Origin: Microbacterium sp. Root61
GTDB lineage: Bacteria; Actinomycetota; Actinomycetes; Actinomycetales; Microbacteriaceae
Length of the DNA stretch: 64,000 nucleotides
Direction of reading: 5' to 3'
NCBI RefSeq assembly: GCF_001427525.1
Contig: NZ_LMGU01000001.1
Span: forward strand, 3,107,713-3,171,712
The position numbers were made by a program, and so were the translations under genes. Position 1 is the first letter of the stretch; each line of letters starts with the position of its first letter. This document shows positions 15,329 through 22,776 of this stretch, in pieces. The notes under the pieces are model-generated. The model made no database searches, was not told the origin of the DNA, and was given only the letters and a program-made list of their open reading frames with translations.

Positions 15329-16300
15329 ATGACTGAATCCCCCCGCATCGTGGTGCTGGCCGGAGGCGTGGGCGGGTCCAAGTTCACGCTCGGCGTGCGC
15401 GAGGCGCTCGTCCGGCGCGGCGCACCCGAGGCCACCGTCGTGGTCAACACCGGCGACGACCTCTGGCTGAGCGGGGTCCGACTCCAGCCCGACATCGACT
15501 CGATCGTCTACGCCCTGGCCGGCGTCAACGACGTCGTCCGCGGCTGGGGTCGCGCGGGAGACACCGAGCGCGTCAACCACGAGCTGCAGGCGTGGGGCGC
15601 GGGCTGGCCGTGGTTCACGCTCGGCGACCTCGATCTCGGCACGCACCTCGCCCGCACGGGGTGGCTCCGCGACGGACTGACGCCCACGCAGGTGCTTGAG
15701 CGGATGTCGCGGCGCTGGCCCCTCGGCGCCCACCTGCTGCCCATGACCGATGCGGAGGTCGACACGATCGTGCACGTCCGCGACGGTGCGGCGATGCACT
15801 TCCAGGAGTGGTGGACGCGGCACCGTGCGACCCTCGAGCCGACCGCCTTCGAGAACCCCGGCATCGCCGCCGCCCAGCCCGCGCCCGGCGTCGTCGAGGC
15901 CATCGCCGCCGCCGACGTCGTGCTGCTCGCTCCGTCGAACCCCGTCGTCTCGATCGGGCCGATCCTCGCCGTGCCCGGCATCCGGGAAGCCCTCGCGACC
16001 ACGAGCGCGACCGTCGTCGGCGTCTCACCGATCATCGGCGGCCGGGTCGTGCGTGGCATGGCCGACGTCTGCCTGACCGCGATCGGCGTGGAAACCTCGG
16101 CCGCCGCCGTCGCCGGTCACTACGGCGCGCGCCGCGACGGCGGGCTGCTCGACGCCTGGCTCCTCGCCGAGGAGGACGCGGCGCTCGCCCCCGCGGTCGA
16201 AGGACGCGGCATCCGCTCGGTCGTCTGCCCTCTCTGGATGACGGATGCTGCGGCCACCGCGGCGATCGTCGAACACGCGCTCGCCGCGGCCGACGCATAG
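15329..16300 (+). CDS. cofD: 2-phospho-L-lactate transferase (FbiA/CofD)
   Basis: Transfers the phospholactyl (or phosphoenolpyruvyl) group from the GDP-activated donor to Fo, giving F420-0. The 323-residue protein starts with the family's VVLAGGVGGSKFTLGVREAL, followed by VNTGDDLWLSGVRLQPDIDSIVY, WFTLGDLDLGTHLARTGWL and PSNPVVSIGPIL. Its partner CofC, which makes the activated donor, lies about 1.5 kb away on the opposite strand together with FbiC and an F420-dependent dehydrogenase. The gene ends overlapping the GTG of the next gene. Confidence 0.93.
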   Translation: MTESPRIVVLAGGVGGSKFTLGVREALVRRGAPEATVVVNTGDDLWLSGVRLQPDIDSIVYALAGVNDVVRGWGRAGDTERVNHELQAWGAGWPWFTLGDLDLGTHLARTGWLRDGLTPTQVLERMSRRWPLGAHLLPMTDAEVDTIVHVRDGAAMHFQEWWTRHRATLEPTAFENPGIAAAQPAPGVVEAIAAADVVLLAPSNPVVSIGPILAVPGIREALATTSATVVGVSPIIGGRVVRGMADVCLTAIGVETSAAAVAGHYGARRDGGLLDAWLLAEEDAALAPAVEGRGIRSVVCPLWMTDAAATAAIVEHALAAADA

Positions 16301-17244: not shown

Positions 17245-17868
17245 CTAGGCGAGCGCGCGTCCGCCAAGGAGCGCCGCGGTGCGCGGACCGACGCCCAGGG
17301 CCGCCGCGGCCGTCAGCTGGGCGACGGTGTCGACGTCGCGACGCAGGGTCGAGGCATCCGGGATCTCCAGCGCCACGCAGCCCCGCGCGAGGTGCTGCGC
17401 GAACGATTCCGCGCCGAAGGCCGTTTCCCAGGTGACCCCCGCTCGCGCGGTGACGAGCGTCGAGCCGGTGCCCTCGGCATCCGCGACGACGGCACGGTGG
17501 ACGGATGCCGCGGACTCCAGCGCGGCGGACAGATCACCCGGGCGCAGCGCGGGGAGGTCGCCCAGGAGCGCCGCCCGCGGCACGTCGACCCCGACCGAGG
17601 CCGCTCCCGTCGCGATCGCGGCGTTCAGCCCGCGCGTCGGGCCCTCGGGAACCACGCGCACCCCCGCCATCGCCTGAGCGGCTTCGGTCACGCCCGCGTC
17701 GTCCGTCACGACGACCACCGTGGCCACGGCGGCGGCCGCCTCGATGGTGTCGAGCGCGATCGCACGCGCGAGCGCTTCCCGGTCGACGCCGACTCCGGCC
17801 AGTCGGGACTTGCCGATCGCCGACGGTTTGACCGGGACGATCACGGTCCAGCCGTCGGGCCCGCTCAC
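17245..17868 (-). CDS. cofC: 2-phospho-L-lactate guanylyltransferase (CofC/FbiD)
   Basis: Activates phospholactate or phosphoenolpyruvate with GTP for CofD. The 207-residue nucleotidyltransferase has the motif VIVPVKPSAIGKSRLAG at the N-terminus, VVVVTDD, PEGPTRGLNAAI, LLGDLPAL and a metal/nucleotide region ADAEGTGSTLVTA. GTG overlaps the fgd stop (GTGA). It is the last gene of the minus-strand F420 operon and faces the cofD/TSUP pair. Confidence 0.92.
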   Translation of the reverse strand: MSGPDGWTVIVPVKPSAIGKSRLAGVGVDREALARAIALDTIEAAAAVATVVVVTDDAGVTEAAQAMAGVRVVPEGPTRGLNAAIATGAASVGVDVPRAALLGDLPALRPGDLSAALESAASVHRAVVADAEGTGSTLVTARAGVTWETAFGAESFAQHLARGCVALEIPDASTLRRDVDTVAQLTAAAALGVGPRTAALLGGRALA

Positions 17869-18884
17869 ACTCCGAACCGTGCGCGCAGGCGCGGCAGGAT
17901 CTCGGCGCCGTACGTGCGCAGGAACTCGGCCTGATCGTGACCGGGGTCGTGGAACACGAGGTGGCGGAAACCGAGCTCTACGTAGGCCGCGATGCGCTCG
18001 ACGTGCTCGTCGGGGTCGGTCGAGACGATGAAGCGCGACGCGGCACGTTCGATCGGCAGTTCGGCAGCCCGTCGCTGCATCTCGATCGGGTCGTGGACGC
18101 CCATCTTCTCCTCGGCCGACAGCGCCAACGGCGCCCAGAACCGGGTCTTCTCCAGAGCGACCTCGCGGTCGGGGTGGTACGAGACCTTGACCTCCATGAG
18201 GGTGTCCACGGCGTCGGCGGGACGGCCGGCCTTCGCGAGACCATCCGCCAGCGCGGGCAGCAGCGTCTCGGTGTACAGCGCCGGGTCCTTGCCGCTCGTC
18301 GTGATGTAGCCGTCCGCGATCCGGCCCGCGAGTCGGGTCGCTGCCGGACCGGACGCGCCGATGTAGATCGGGACCTTCTGATCGGCGGGCGGCCGGTCGT
18401 AGATCGTGGCGTCCTTGACCGAGTAGTAGGTCCCGTCGAACGTGACGCGGTCCTGCTCCCACAACTTTTCGATCAGGATGATGGCTTCCTTCAACCGCTG
18501 GAAGCGCTCCGGGCCATCCGGCCAGTCCAGCCCCAGCGTGACCTCGTTGAGCGCCTCACCCGTGCCGACGCCGAGGATCATGCGCCCCGGATACATCACG
18601 CCGAGGGTGGCGAACGCCTGCGCGATCACGGCCGGGTGGTACCGGAAGGTCGGGGTCAGCACGGAGGTGCCGAGCAGCACGCGCTCGGTGCGGGCGCCGA
18701 GCGCGCCGAGCCAGGGGAGGGCGGCCGGCGCGTGACCGCCGTCGTGCATCCACGGCTGGAAGTGGTCGGAGAGGAAGACCGAGTCGAAGCCCATCTCCTC
18801 GGCCAGCACACCGAACTCGACCAGCTCGGTGGGTCCGAACTGCTCCGCGGAGGCCTTGTACCCGAACCGCAGGGGAACCGTCAT
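17865..18884 (-). CDS. fgd: F420-dependent glucose-6-phosphate dehydrogenase
   Basis: Oxidises glucose-6-phosphate to 6-phosphogluconolactone while reducing F420. The 339-residue luciferase-like TIM barrel keeps the FGD signatures: FGYKASAEQFGPTELVE, SDHFQPW with the catalytic His (His41) and Trp45, GTSVLTPTFRYHPAVIAQAF, and GVGTGEALNE with the catalytic Glu (Glu110). The C-terminal HLVFHDPGHDQ also matches. An AGAGGAGAAG ribosome site precedes ATG, which overlaps the upstream stop (ATGA). It supplies F420H2 and is coupled to fbiC and cofC. Confidence 0.93.
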   Translation of the reverse strand: MTVPLRFGYKASAEQFGPTELVEFGVLAEEMGFDSVFLSDHFQPWMHDGGHAPAALPWLGALGARTERVLLGTSVLTPTFRYHPAVIAQAFATLGVMYPGRMILGVGTGEALNEVTLGLDWPDGPERFQRLKEAIILIEKLWEQDRVTFDGTYYSVKDATIYDRPPADQKVPIYIGASGPAATRLAGRIADGYITTSGKDPALYTETLLPALADGLAKAGRPADAVDTLMEVKVSYHPDREVALEKTRFWAPLALSAEEKMGVHDPIEMQRRAAELPIERAASRFIVSTDPDEHVERIAAYVELGFRHLVFHDPGHDQAEFLRTYGAEILPRLRARFGV

Positions 18885-20392
18885 GACTCTTCTCCTCTCG
18901 CGGGCCGCGCGTCCGCGCCGCTCGCCGTGATGCTTTCCAGTTCGAACTCCGTGCCGCCGGTGCGCGCCAGCCGCGAGCGGAACGCGTCGACGGTTCCGGG
19001 CCACAGCAGGGTGAGGCGGCCGGAGCGTTCGTCGACGTACCAGTTGCGGCATCCGCCCGTGATCCAGGGGGTGGATGCGGCGGCCCGCGCGATCTCGTCG
19101 GTATAGGTCCGCTCGGCCTCGGGATGCACGCGCAGCACGCCGTCGGCGAGGGTCTCGCGCAGGGCCAGGGCGCGCACGGCGTAGGCCGCCTGCTCCTCGA
19201 CCATCAGCACGGACGAGTTGTGGCCGAGCGACGCGTTGGGGCCGTTCAGCACGAACATGTTCGGGAACCCGCCGACGACAGTGGAGGCGAAGGAGGTCAT
19301 GCCCTCGGACCAGTGCTCGTCGAGGGTGATGCCGTCCTCGCCGCGGACGAGCGCCGCATAGGGCTGCCGGGTGGACGCGAAGCCGGTCGCGAGCACGAGC
19401 ACGTCCACCTCGTGGCGCGCGCCGCTCTCGGCGACGAGCGTCGAGCCCTCGACCGACGCGAGCGCAGACGCCTCCAGCGTCACCGCGCCCGAGCCGATCG
19501 CGGGGTAGAACGCGTCCGACAGCAGCACCCGCTTGCACCCGAACGCGTAGTCGGGGGTGAGTGAGGCCCGCAGTGCGGGGTCGCCGACCTGGGAGTGCAG
19601 GTGCGCGAGTGCGATGTCGCGGGCTGCGACGGATGCCGCGGCATCCCCCGATCGTGAGGCGAAGCGCGCCTCGCCCTCGGCGTACAGCTCGGCGCGGAGT
19701 CGATCGAGGGATTCCGGATGCGCGGCGAAGTCGGCGCGCTCGGCGTCGCTGTACGCGCGGGCGTCGCGGGGCACGATCCATGCCGGGGTGCGCTGGAAGA
19801 GTGTCACCCGTGCGGCGCGGGACGCCAGCTCCGGCACGAGCTGGATCGCGCTGGCGCCGGTGCCGACCACGGCGACCCTGGCGTGGGCGAGGTCGACGGA
19901 GTGATCCCAGCGGGCCGAGTGGAACAGCGGGCCGGGGAAGCTCTCCAGCCCCGGCACGTCCGGGACATCGGGCTCGGTCAGTCGGCCGCAGGCCAGGACC
20001 AGGGCCTCGGCCTCGATAGTCTCGGGGGCGTCGCCGCCGGTCTCGATGCGCCACACGTCGTCATCCCAGACGGCAGCGAGCATCGGGGCGCGCAGGCGGA
20101 GCCGGTCGCCGAGCTGCTCGAGATCGACGACGTCCTCGAGGTAGCCGCGGATCTCGTCGCCGCGCGCATACACGCCCGACCAGGCCGGGTTGGGGTGTGC
20201 GGCGAAACCGTACAGGTGCGAGGGCACGTCGCACGCGACGCCCGGATAGGTGTTCTCGCGCCAGGTGCCGCCGACGGATGCCGCGCGCTCCAGGATCGCG
20301 AACGACTCGCGCCCGGCCCGCCGCAGCGCCATCGCCATGCCGATGCCGGCGAACCCGGCGCCGACGATCGCGACCTCCACGCGCACTGTCAT
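18881..20392 (-). CDS. Flavin-containing Baeyer-Villiger-type monooxygenase
   Basis: A 503-residue FAD/NADPH monooxygenase. GAGFAG near residues 11-16 and VVGTGASA near 176-183 are the two dinucleotide motifs. FPGPLFHSARWD (152-163) fits the Baeyer-Villiger fingerprint FxGxxxHxxxW. Other family blocks are GGTWRENTYPGVACDVPSHLY and a late DVLVLATGF. It sits between fbiC and fgd with ATGA overlaps on both sides, so it belongs to the F420 operon although FAD/NADPH enzymes of this family do not need F420. Substrate unknown (ketones, steroids or terpenoids are typical). Confidence 0.88.
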   Translation of the reverse strand: MTVRVEVAIVGAGFAGIGMAMALRRAGRESFAILERAASVGGTWRENTYPGVACDVPSHLYGFAAHPNPAWSGVYARGDEIRGYLEDVVDLEQLGDRLRLRAPMLAAVWDDDVWRIETGGDAPETIEAEALVLACGRLTEPDVPDVPGLESFPGPLFHSARWDHSVDLAHARVAVVGTGASAIQLVPELASRAARVTLFQRTPAWIVPRDARAYSDAERADFAAHPESLDRLRAELYAEGEARFASRSGDAAASVAARDIALAHLHSQVGDPALRASLTPDYAFGCKRVLLSDAFYPAIGSGAVTLEASALASVEGSTLVAESGARHEVDVLVLATGFASTRQPYAALVRGEDGITLDEHWSEGMTSFASTVVGGFPNMFVLNGPNASLGHNSSVLMVEEQAAYAVRALALRETLADGVLRVHPEAERTYTDEIARAAASTPWITGGCRNWYVDERSGRLTLLWPGTVDAFRSRLARTGGTEFELESITASGADARPARGEES

Positions 20393-22776
20393 CGCGTGCC
20401 CGTCGGCTCGCGGTAGTCCGTCGTGCGCACCCGGAACGGCCGGAACAGGCGCGCGGCGATGCGTGCGGCATCCGCCACCGGCAGTTCGAGGCCCTGCTCG
20501 ATGCCCGTGTCCGGACGCACGCGTCCGTCCAGCAGCGTCCCGCCGAGGTCGTCGCCGCCGGCGCGGAGGAGGACGGCGGCGGTCTCGCGGCCGACGCGCG
20601 TCCACGGGATCTGGACGTGCGGGATGCTGCCGGACAGCAGCAGTCGGGATACTGCGACCATCGCCCGGTGCTCGTCGAGGGCGGATCTGCCGGTGACCAG
20701 GGGAGTGCCGTGTCCGGGGAGCGGGATGGGCACGAATTCGGTGAATCCGCCTGTCTCGGCCTGGATCCCGCGGAGTCGGTGCAGGTGGGCGATGCGCTCG
20801 GCGGCGGTCTCGACATGCCCGTAGAACAAGACGGACGTCGAGTTCAACCCGGCGCGGTGTGCGGCGGTGATGCCCTCGACCCAGCGGTCGATCTCGAGGT
20901 CGCCGGGGGCGATCAGGCCCCGGACGCGTTCGCTGAGCACCTTCACCCCGGTGCCCGGGACTGTGTTCACTCCGGCGCTCGTCAGTGCGGCCAGGGCTCC
21001 CGTGAGTCCGAGGCCGCCGCGCTCGGCGAGATCCCACACGTCTTGCGGACGGTAGGCGTGGATGTGCAGGCCCGGCGACGCCGTCCGGATGGCGCGGACG
21101 ATCTCGAGGTACGCCTCCGGAGCCTCGGACGGCTCGAGGCGTCCCTGCACGCACAGCTCGGTGGCGCCCAGGTCCCACGCGTCGGCCGCGATGGCGCCGA
21201 CCTCGTCGAGTGTGAATGTGCCCGGCTCGGAGGTGGCGGCGGAGCGGAACCCGGTGGAGGTCAGGTTGCGGTTGATGACCAGGCTCACGGCCTCGCCCAC
21301 GGTGTAGCGGCGCACATCGTCGGCGGTCGCGGCGAGGTGGTCGAGGTCGTCGCCGGTGGCCTCGAGCAGTGCGATCCATTCGGCGTCGTCGAGGCTCAGC
21401 GGATCGGAGGCGGCCCGCGCCGCGACCCCTCGCACGTCCCCCGCGCGAGACGTGGCGAAAGTGCCTGCCGCGGCGCGGGGTGGAACCGTTTGCCGCGTCT
21501 CGCGCAACGGGGTGGGGAGTGTCAGCGGGGCGGCGAGGCCTGTCGCGGGGTCGGCCAGCGCGACCACCGCCGGCAGGAGGTCGGGGTCGATCCACGCGGC
21601 GGCATCGTGCAGGTACTCGGGGTGGGCGGTCAGGCGCTCGCGCAGGATGAAGCCGAGTTCGGCCGTCATGGCCGCGAGGTCGTCGACGTGCGGCCATGGC
21701 CGCTCCGGGTTGACGTGGTCGGCCGTGAGCGGCGAAACGCCGCCCCAGTCGTCGGCGCCGGCCGCGATCAGCAGCGCGAACTCCGCCGGATCGGACAGAT
21801 TCGGCGGCACCTGGATGCGCATGTGCGGACCCATGACCACGCGCGCCACGGCGACGGCGGCGACGTGCTCGAAGACCGAGGCATCCGGTGCCGACTGCAT
21901 CGCGGTGCGGGGCTTCGCGCGGAAGTTCTGCACGATCACCTCCTGCACGTGACCGCGTCCGCCGCGGACATGCCGCTCGTTCGAGTCTCGGAGGGCGATG
22001 AGCGATTCGGCGCGGTCGCGCAGGGTCTCGCCGATGCCCACGAGGATTCCAGTGGTGAACGGGATGCCGGCACGCCCGGCATCCTCGATCACGGCCAGCC
22101 GCAGGTCGGGGTCCTTGTCGGGCGAGCCGAAGTGCACCTGTCCGGGCTCCTCGAACAGGCGACGCGAGGTGGTCTCGAGCATCATGCCCATCGACGGAGC
22201 GGTGGGCCGCAGCATCCGCAGCTCGTCGTACGCCATTACCCCGGGGTTCAGGTGCACGAGCATCCCGGTCTCGGCGGTGATCAGGCGCGCGATGTGGCCG
22301 ACGTAGTCCAGCGTCGAGGCGAAGCCGTGCTCGTCGAGCCAGGCGCGCGCCTCGGGCCAGCGGTCCTCGGGGCGGTCGCCGAGCGTGAGCAGCGCCTCCT
22401 TGCAGCCCAGCGCGGCGCCCTGCCGCACGACCGACAGCACCTGCTCCGGCGACATGTACGCGGGCTTGTGCATCTTCAGCAACTGGGCCGGGGTATCCAC
22501 GAACACGCAGTAGTGGCAGCGGTCGCGGCACAGGGTGGTCAGCGGCACGAACACCTTGCGCGAGTACGTGATCACACCGGGACGCCCGGATGCCTCGAGC
22601 CCGGCATCGCGGAGTGCTCCGGCGATGCGCAGGAGCTCGTCGAGGTCTTCTCCCCGGGCGTGCAGCAGCGCTTCGGCGTCGTCGACGTCGAGTCGCTCGC
22701 CGCGGGCGGCTCGCGCGAGCCCCGCTGCGATCGAGCGGTGGTCGGCAGCCGCGACGGGCGAATCCACGGTGGTCAT
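20389..22776 (-). CDS. fbiC: FbiC-type Fo synthase fusion (CofG-CofH) with CofH half lacking its iron-sulfur cysteines
   Basis: FbiC fuses two radical-SAM domains, CofG and CofH, which together build Fo, the deazaflavin precursor of F420. The CofG half (about 65-420) is intact: TTLCRDRCHYCVF gives CX3CX2C at Cys83, Cys87 and Cys90. The CofH half (about 480-795) keeps the fold markers VINRN, HIHAYRP, GTGVKVL, FYGHVETAAERIAHL, TGGFTEFVPIPL and LGGTLLDG. Where CX3CX2C should follow VINRN, residues 502-523 read NRNLTSTGFRSAATSEPGTF, with no Cys. The frame is continuous, so this is not a frameshift. Length is 795 residues, shorter than the ~850 typical of FbiC. First gene of the operon. Confidence 0.88.
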   Translation of the reverse strand: MTTVDSPVAAADHRSIAAGLARAARGERLDVDDAEALLHARGEDLDELLRIAGALRDAGLEASGRPGVITYSRKVFVPLTTLCRDRCHYCVFVDTPAQLLKMHKPAYMSPEQVLSVVRQGAALGCKEALLTLGDRPEDRWPEARAWLDEHGFASTLDYVGHIARLITAETGMLVHLNPGVMAYDELRMLRPTAPSMGMMLETTSRRLFEEPGQVHFGSPDKDPDLRLAVIEDAGRAGIPFTTGILVGIGETLRDRAESLIALRDSNERHVRGGRGHVQEVIVQNFRAKPRTAMQSAPDASVFEHVAAVAVARVVMGPHMRIQVPPNLSDPAEFALLIAAGADDWGGVSPLTADHVNPERPWPHVDDLAAMTAELGFILRERLTAHPEYLHDAAAWIDPDLLPAVVALADPATGLAAPLTLPTPLRETRQTVPPRAAAGTFATSRAGDVRGVAARAASDPLSLDDAEWIALLEATGDDLDHLAATADDVRRYTVGEAVSLVINRNLTSTGFRSAATSEPGTFTLDEVGAIAADAWDLGATELCVQGRLEPSEAPEAYLEIVRAIRTASPGLHIHAYRPQDVWDLAERGGLGLTGALAALTSAGVNTVPGTGVKVLSERVRGLIAPGDLEIDRWVEGITAAHRAGLNSTSVLFYGHVETAAERIAHLHRLRGIQAETGGFTEFVPIPLPGHGTPLVTGRSALDEHRAMVAVSRLLLSGSIPHVQIPWTRVGRETAAVLLRAGGDDLGGTLLDGRVRPDTGIEQGLELPVADAARIAARLFRPFRVRTTDYREPTGTR

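What the first reader, a model, noticed from the sequence alone, without database searches (positions are those of the whole stretch)
21208..21273. FbiC whose CofH half has lost every radical-SAM cysteine
Fo synthase needs two radical-SAM centres. Here the CofG half keeps CX3CX2C (Cys83/87/90). In the CofH half, the segment after VINRN that should contain CX3CX2C reads LTSTGFRSAATSEPGTF, with no Cys in any position. I re-derived the codons from the minus strand: the frame is continuous, flanking CofH blocks are recognisable, and neither alternative frame supplies cysteines. About 290 further CofH codons stay open, so the domain persists without its cluster. Either a separate CofH exists elsewhere, the half has become structural, or Fo synthesis is lost while fgd, cofC and cofD remain. 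That is an unusual state for an F420 operon.
Basis: partly seen in the sequence, partly recalled or inferred. Interest (0 to 1): 0.82.

Follow-up and report, generated by a model that had tools for sequence, protein, structure and literature searches.

The report
Cluster-less CofH paired with a monooxygenase
Many aerobic actinobacteria appear to make the F420 cofactor with a form of the enzyme CofH that has lost its iron-sulphur site, and in every locus examined this form comes with an oxygen-using monooxygenase gene, which suggests that an oxygen-based step has replaced a radical step so far described as universal.

Summary
The window's FbiC (20389-22776, minus) keeps the CofG cluster motif. 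Its CofH half has no cluster cysteines, and 120 of 120 listed homologues share this. The Cys-less CofH is an old, conserved subfamily found in many actinomycete genera, fused to CofG or as a stand-alone gene.

The unexpected part is the partner. A Baeyer-Villiger-type flavin monooxygenase gene lies downstream on the same strand in 84 of 84 Cys-less loci and 0 of 48 canonical loci, and in 80 of 80 named loci (overlapping set). CofD and CofE are present in 56 of 56 Cys-less-only genomes tested. CofH and monooxygenase diverge together (r = 0.90, 79 loci).

Best reading: the pair replaces the radical-SAM CofH reaction with an O2-dependent route, and CofG finishes FO. The pairing is shown; the chemistry is inferred. 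Against a simple replacement, five of five Nocardia genomes tested carry both a canonical FbiC and the pair. Nine paper searches listed nothing that describes this; a 2021 review calls the two-radical-SAM mechanism universal in all studied producers (passages).

The parts
20389..22776 (-). fbiC, 795 aa: CofG half (residues 1 to about 424, 21505-22776) fused to a Cys-less CofH half (about 425-795, 20389-21504)
22507..22533 (-). Intact CX3CX2C of the CofG half (LCRDRCHYC, residues 82-90, Cys83/87/90)
21208..21273 (-). Eroded cluster loop of the CofH half (NRNLTSTGFRSAATSEPGTFTL, residues 502-523); NRN kept, all three cluster Cys absent
21049..21051 (-). Arg576, Arg in 84 of 84 Cys-less CofH, Ser in 48 of 48 canonical CofH; two residues after a strand of the model
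20809..20811 (-). Glu656, Glu in 84 of 84 Cys-less CofH, Asp in 48 of 48 canonical CofH; four residues after a strand of the model
18881..20392 (-). Class B flavin monooxygenase with Baeyer-Villiger-type motifs (503 aa); its start overlaps the fbiC stop by 4 bp (ATGA); proposed partner of the Cys-less CofH
17865..18884 (-). fgd, F420-dependent glucose-6-phosphate dehydrogenase (TIGR03554 460.6 bits, cut-off 420); 4 bp overlap with the monooxygenase gene
17245..17868 (-). cofC (TIGR03552 123.1 bits, cut-off 105); 4 bp overlap with fgd if the GTG start chosen here is right
15329..16300 (+). cofD (TIGR01819 305.8 bits, cut-off 257.45)

Best explanation
The Cys-less CofH half and the monooxygenase encoded next to it together replace the radical-SAM CofH reaction of FO synthesis; the intact radical-SAM CofG half then closes the ring. 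Shown: the cluster and one glycine of the canonical QGG motif are gone, much of the rest of the barrel is conserved, the monooxygenase gene accompanies it in every locus read, and the other F420 genes are kept. Inferred: the barrel still binds 5-amino-6-ribitylaminouracil and an aromatic donor, while the flavin monooxygenase uses NADPH and O2 to make a 4-hydroxybenzyl electrophile from a tyrosine-derived ketone or aldehyde. In my preferred version, Baeyer-Villiger oxidation of 4-hydroxyphenylpyruvate or 4-hydroxyphenylacetaldehyde gives a 4-hydroxybenzyl ester, which expels its acid to form a p-quinone methide. C5 of the uracil attacks this inside the CofH barrel and gives the normal CofG substrate. 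I put about 0.65-0.7 on replacement of the CofH step by the pair and about 0.3 on this particular chemistry.
For: Cluster loss is lineage-wide: 120 of 120 listed FbiC homologues and 120 of 120 listed homologues of a stand-alone CofH (of 746). Monooxygenase downstream, same strand: 84 of 84 Cys-less and 0 of 48 canonical loci; 80 of 80 named loci. In 67 of the 84 the distance from the CofH stop to the monooxygenase homology is 350 bp or less, in 17 it is up to 910 bp, room for one gene. In Kineococcus (named through) and a second family the CofH is a stand-alone gene next to the monooxygenase while cofG is a separate gene; in G155 cofG is on another contig. CofG keeps CX3CX2C in 81 of 81 Cys-less loci that show a CofG. 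CofD 56 of 56 and strong CofE 56 of 56 in Cys-less-only genomes, against 3 of 18 and 4 of 18 where no CofH hit was found. 24 of 29 named genomes have no CofH over the cut-off. Best partner-profile score 680-801 bits in 11 of 11 Cys-less genomes, at most 578.5 in 27 others (six of the 11 contributed to the profile). Divergence of CofH and monooxygenase correlates at 0.90, CofH-CofG 0.83, CofG-monooxygenase 0.81. CofH dN/dS 0.11-0.29. Tree of 68 rows: Cys-less on one side of one branch, SH-aLRT 100. 46 CofH columns are conserved at 95% or more with the same residue in both forms; Arg576 and Glu656 are new invariants. The predicted fold matches MqnE, TM 0.79.
Against: Five of 29 named genomes, the five Nocardia, also have a canonical CofH, so there the pair is not a replacement and might make something else. 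No FO or F420 measurement was found here for an organism that has only the Cys-less form. Baeyer-Villiger activity and substrate are untested, and class B flavoenzymes also do N- and S-oxidation (recalled). Conservation of substrate-binding residues is inferred; no CofH structure came up in the PDB searches. The CofH half has a higher dN/dS than CofG in 8 of 9 pairs. Two canonical genomes hold fairly close relatives of the monooxygenase (578.5 and 555.5 bits), and one Cys-less genome holds a second one at 590 bits.
Confidence: 0.65

Rival explanations
1. The Cys-less CofH and the monooxygenase form a unit, but make a different product (a modified deazaflavin or an unrelated aromatic conjugate) rather than the standard CofG substrate.
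For: In five of five Nocardia genomes tested the pair coexists with a canonical CofH, so there it is not needed for FO. One Actinoplanes genome (G1026) has, besides the locus read, a second CofH-type hit below the cut-off, whose sequence I did not read.
Against: In 24 of 29 named genomes and in 366 of 366 genus genomes searched no CofH over the cut-off was found, yet CofD and CofE are kept in 56 of 56 Cys-less-only genomes tested and the window has CofC and Fgd. Ordinary F420 enzymes such as Fgd presumably need ordinary F420.
Confidence: 0.17
2. The CofH half is only a scaffold; an unlinked, unrecognised enzyme or the CofG centre makes the intermediate, and the monooxygenase is a functionally unrelated neighbour.
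For: The cluster and the second glycine of QGG are gone, so the half should not do radical-SAM chemistry by itself.
Against: The monooxygenase gene is present in 84 of 84 and 80 of 80 loci and in 0 of 48 canonical loci. Stand-alone CofH is kept without a fused CofG. The two proteins co-diverge (r 0.90).
Confidence: 0.11
3. FO synthesis is lost and these bacteria scavenge FO or a precursor; FbiC is in slow decay.
For: G315, G006 and G016 have cofD and cofE but no cofG or cofH over the cut-offs, so scavenging may exist in relatives.
Against: dN/dS of CofH 0.11-0.29 and of CofG 0.04-0.21. The split between forms is a single branch, not repeated recent loss. A scavenger of FO would not need CofG, yet CofG keeps its motif in 81 of 81 loci that show it.
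Confidence: 0.07

Closest known systems
CofH / C-terminal half of FbiC (radical-SAM; TIGR03551)
   Same: Same barrel, CofH_C domain, NRN, TExC-Q-G and PGT segments; same place in the F420 gene set; 46 columns conserved at 95% or more in both forms.
   Different: No CX3CX2C, second Gly of QGG lost, cluster loop replaced by a variable loop, Ser to Arg576 and Asp to Glu656; below the family cut-off; accompanied by a monooxygenase gene in every locus read.
Type I Baeyer-Villiger monooxygenases (phenylacetone, steroid and cyclohexanone monooxygenase)
   Same: Both BVMO motifs (motifs recalled) and a GCKR segment aligned to GAKR of steroid monooxygenase; 327 bits to 4ap3 with the profile.
   Different: Members tied to Cys-less CofH score 680-801 bits to the partner profile, the best in 27 other genomes at most 578.5; 503 aa; substrate unknown.
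MqnE, aminofutalosine synthase (PDB 6xi9, 6xig)
   Same: Nearest solved fold to the CofH half, TM 0.79.
   Different: MqnE is a radical-SAM enzyme of the menaquinone pathway (recalled); the window's CofH half has no cluster motif.
ThiH versus ThiO and HemN versus HemF (recalled, no call)
   Same: Known cases where an O2-using enzyme stands in for a radical-SAM enzyme in cofactor synthesis.
   Different: There the stand-in is unrelated to the radical-SAM enzyme; here the old barrel is kept and joined by an oxygenase.

Membership tests
Radical-SAM CofH (TIGR03551) | CX3CX2C cluster motif | tested here: not met
   No Cys in the segment in the window; none in 120 of 120 listed homologues and no CX3CX2C in 120 of 120 listed homologues of a stand-alone CofH
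Radical-SAM CofH (TIGR03551) | Score above the curated cut-off | tested here: not met
   317 bits against 374.1; 0 of 366 genus genomes above it
Radical-SAM CofH (TIGR03551) | CofH_C domain PF19288 and the CofH/MqnE fold | tested here: met
   33.8 bits against 27; fold match to 6xig, TM 0.79
Radical-SAM CofH (TIGR03551) | SAM cleavage and 4-hydroxybenzyl transfer from tyrosine | not testable with these tools
   Needs an assay
FbiC (NF006687) | Two radical-SAM centres; score above cut-off | tested here: not met
   One cluster motif only; 925.7 bits against 1018
Radical-SAM CofG (TIGR03550) | CX3CX2C and score above cut-off | tested here: met
   LCRDRCHYC; 454.8 bits against 213.35
Type I Baeyer-Villiger monooxygenase | FxGxxxHxxxW[PD] and GGxWxxxxxPGxxxD motifs (recalled) | tested here: met
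   FPGPLFHSARWD and GGTWRENTYPGVACD; key columns invariant or at 90% or more in 66 sequences
Type I Baeyer-Villiger monooxygenase | NADPH- and O2-dependent ester formation | not testable with these tools
   Needs an assay
F420 biosynthesis gene set | CofC, CofD and CofE in the genome | tested here: met
   CofC and CofD in the window; CofE at G000:C1:1996067-1996660, 178.9 bits

The most novel reading that the evidence does not exclude
A second way to make FO exists: an O2-dependent flavin monooxygenase supplies the 4-hydroxybenzyl group and a radical-SAM barrel that has lost its cluster, but kept its substrate pocket, serves as the coupling enzyme. A radical-SAM fold would thereby have been re-purposed for polar chemistry, and one of the two radical steps of F420 synthesis would be dispensable in aerobes.
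Probability: 0.6. Interest if true: 0.9.

Novelty: new variant of a known kind. Interest (0 to 1): 0.85.

Why it matters
A 2021 review states that in all studied F420 producers FO is made by a universal mechanism with two SAM-radical domain enzymes (PMC8498797, passages seen). If the reading is right, that is not universal, and genes now named 'FO synthase' or 'CofG' in many genomes are mis-described. It would add a case of an oxygenase taking over a radical-SAM step, with the unusual twist that the old barrel is kept. An oxygen-tolerant CofH step could help make FO and F420 in aerobic production hosts. The prediction is directly testable with two genes.

Tried and rejected
Rejected: sequencing error or recent mutation; a second CofH in the own genome; decay in one strain; cysteines moved elsewhere in the CofH half (only Cys542 is there, a position conserved at 95% or more in canonical CofH too); any-monooxygenase coincidence.

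Led nowhere or limited: the first family search, with the window's CofH half as a single protein, found only 10 of 299 genomes and was replaced by the TIGR03551 profile, 72 of 299. Model coordinates were not in the Python box, so the pocket was not measured. Of the papers listed in nine searches I read passages of one, PMC8498797; the others I saw only as titles and abstract starts. I did not establish whether any strain with proven F420 has only the Cys-less form. The predicted monooxygenase model was not searched against structures. Intermediate CofH scores in the phylum survey and one fragment of 344.5 bits in the order survey (G674) were not read for cysteines.

Rows dropped and limits of the counts: 18 duplicate loci were removed from 150 to give 84 Cys-less and 48 canonical. 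Loci L010-L019 were read only for the motif. The 80 named loci overlap in part with the 84, and they are the best 80 of 222 relatives found with a Cys-less query, so they test linkage, not frequency. Of the 48 canonical loci, 42 were read only with about 1.5 kb flanks and six also with longer flanks, so a monooxygenase further away would be missed there. The tree uses 68 rows thinned from the sets. Thirty of the 80 named loci were sent; one (L172) was not held.

Full report
What is there. The minus-strand gene at 20389-22776 encodes a 795-aa CofG-CofH fusion. The CofG half passes its curated model and keeps CX3CX2C; the CofH half does not pass (317 against 374.1 bits). fbiC, the monooxygenase gene, fgd and cofC overlap by 4 bp at each junction (coordinates), and cofD lies on the other strand. 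CofE is elsewhere in the genome. The radical-SAM profile gives 8 matches in the genome, two of them the FbiC halves, and only one CofH_C match was found.

Not a local accident. The 120 best homologues listed all lack the cysteines; those with organism names are Microbacterium. Profile searches give two separated score groups. In 299 genomes of the family, 18 score 511-527 bits and the other CofH-like hits 332 or less. In 366 genomes of the genus none is over the cut-off. In 396 genomes of the order 32 are over it, the next being a 344.5-bit fragment and then 303 or less. In 396 genomes of the phylum 187 are over it, so the canonical form is the common one there. Two genera of the family hold both forms, and one more genus seems to, by score alone. 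A tree of 68 sequences puts all 52 Cys-less rows on one side of one branch, SH-aLRT 100. Columns filled in under 30% of rows were dropped, which should remove the cluster columns, as only 16 rows are canonical. This fits one old event followed by spread, vertical or horizontal.

The partner. Comparing neighbourhoods showed a gene downstream of the Cys-less FbiC that encodes a class B flavin monooxygenase with both type I Baeyer-Villiger motifs. After removing duplicates, 84 of 84 Cys-less loci have it on the same strand and 0 of 48 canonical loci do. The distance runs from an overlap of a few bases, 4 bp in the window, to 910 bp; in 17 of 84 it exceeds 350 bp. In other families the fusion is split: a stand-alone Cys-less CofH gene is next to the monooxygenase, while an intact cofG stands apart. 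In G155 cofG is on another contig. A scan of named genomes found 222 relatives, of which the best 80 were kept; all 80 are Cys-less and all 80 have the monooxygenase downstream on the same strand. They include Actinoplanes, Kineococcus, Nocardia, Actinomycetospora, Pseudonocardia, Promicromonospora, Gordonia, Nocardioides, Arthrobacter, Rathayibacter and Agreia. At genome level the best match to the partner profile is 680-801 bits in 11 of 11 Cys-less genomes, six of which contributed to the profile, and at most 578.5 bits in 27 others.

Is the pathway alive? In 80 chosen genomes CofD is over the cut-off in 56 of 56 Cys-less-only, 6 of 6 canonical and 3 of 18 without a CofH hit. CofE matches with E under 1e-20 are in 56, 6 and 4 of these; 8 more of the 18 have only weak matches near 1e-11. 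Selection on CofH is purifying, dN/dS 0.11-0.29, though weaker than on CofG in 8 of 9 pairs. CofH and monooxygenase identities correlate at 0.90 over 79 loci, with 0 of 999 permutations as high; CofH-CofG is 0.83 and CofG-monooxygenase 0.81. Shared descent accounts for much of all three figures.

What changed in the protein. Forty-six CofH columns carry the same residue at 95% or more in both forms. Lost or freed are the three cysteines, their loop and the second glycine of QGG. New invariants are Arg576 (Ser in canonical) and Glu656 (Asp in canonical). In the model (pLDDT 93.8) both follow strands, which would put them at the mouth of the barrel; this last step is inference. The nearest solved fold is MqnE.

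Mechanism. CofH normally makes a p-hydroxybenzyl radical from tyrosine that adds to ribityldiaminouracil (PMC8498797, passages). I propose that the monooxygenase makes an electrophilic 4-hydroxybenzyl donor and that the old pocket directs its transfer. Baeyer-Villiger oxidation of a 4-hydroxyphenylacetyl compound would place oxygen next to the benzylic carbon, and the ester would readily give a p-quinone methide (general chemical knowledge). An alpha/beta hydrolase gene lies between CofH and monooxygenase in a number of non-Microbacterium loci: 5 of 7 proteins from the gap gave Pfam matches. That would fit an ester intermediate, but the Microbacterium loci read have no room for it, and the nucleophile serine is replaced in 3 of 14 distinct sequences with a recognisable elbow. 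So it cannot be essential.

Against. Five of five Nocardia genomes tested carry both systems. No biochemical data were found. The named set was chosen by similarity to Cys-less sequences, so its 80 of 80 says nothing about how common the form is; it tests only the linkage.

Print status. Nine searches of the open library listed no paper whose title or abstract start describes this. Subscription papers and preprints were not searched.

Noticed in passing
G315, G006, G016 (no window coordinates): Genomes with cofD and cofE but no cofG or cofH over the cut-offs; possible FO scavengers.
   Followed up: partly
L084:10614-11549, L090:10808-11929, L096:8130-9155, L118:11018-11995 and others: An alpha/beta hydrolase gene sits between Cys-less CofH and the monooxygenase in a number of non-Microbacterium loci; in 3 of 14 distinct sequences with a recognisable nucleophile elbow Ser is replaced by Gly or Ala.
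   Followed up: partly
L174, L185, L186, L194, L199 (Nocardia): All five Nocardia genomes that were searched have a canonical CofH as well as the Cys-less CofH and monooxygenase pair.
   Followed up: partly
L114:9857-11089 and L249: In G155 the fusion is split: Cys-less CofH with the monooxygenase on one contig, cofG on another.
   Followed up: yes
Public records: Source names call Cys-less proteins 'FO synthase' or 'CofG', and some carry a precomputed radical-SAM domain although the cluster motif is absent.
   Followed up: no
G000:C1:2174157-2175593: A second class B monooxygenase in the same genome, 383.6 bits to the partner profile.
   Followed up: no
L192: One Cys-less locus with the monooxygenase lies in a record titled Acidobacteriaceae bacterium BOG_194; not checked whether the label is right.
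   Followed up: no
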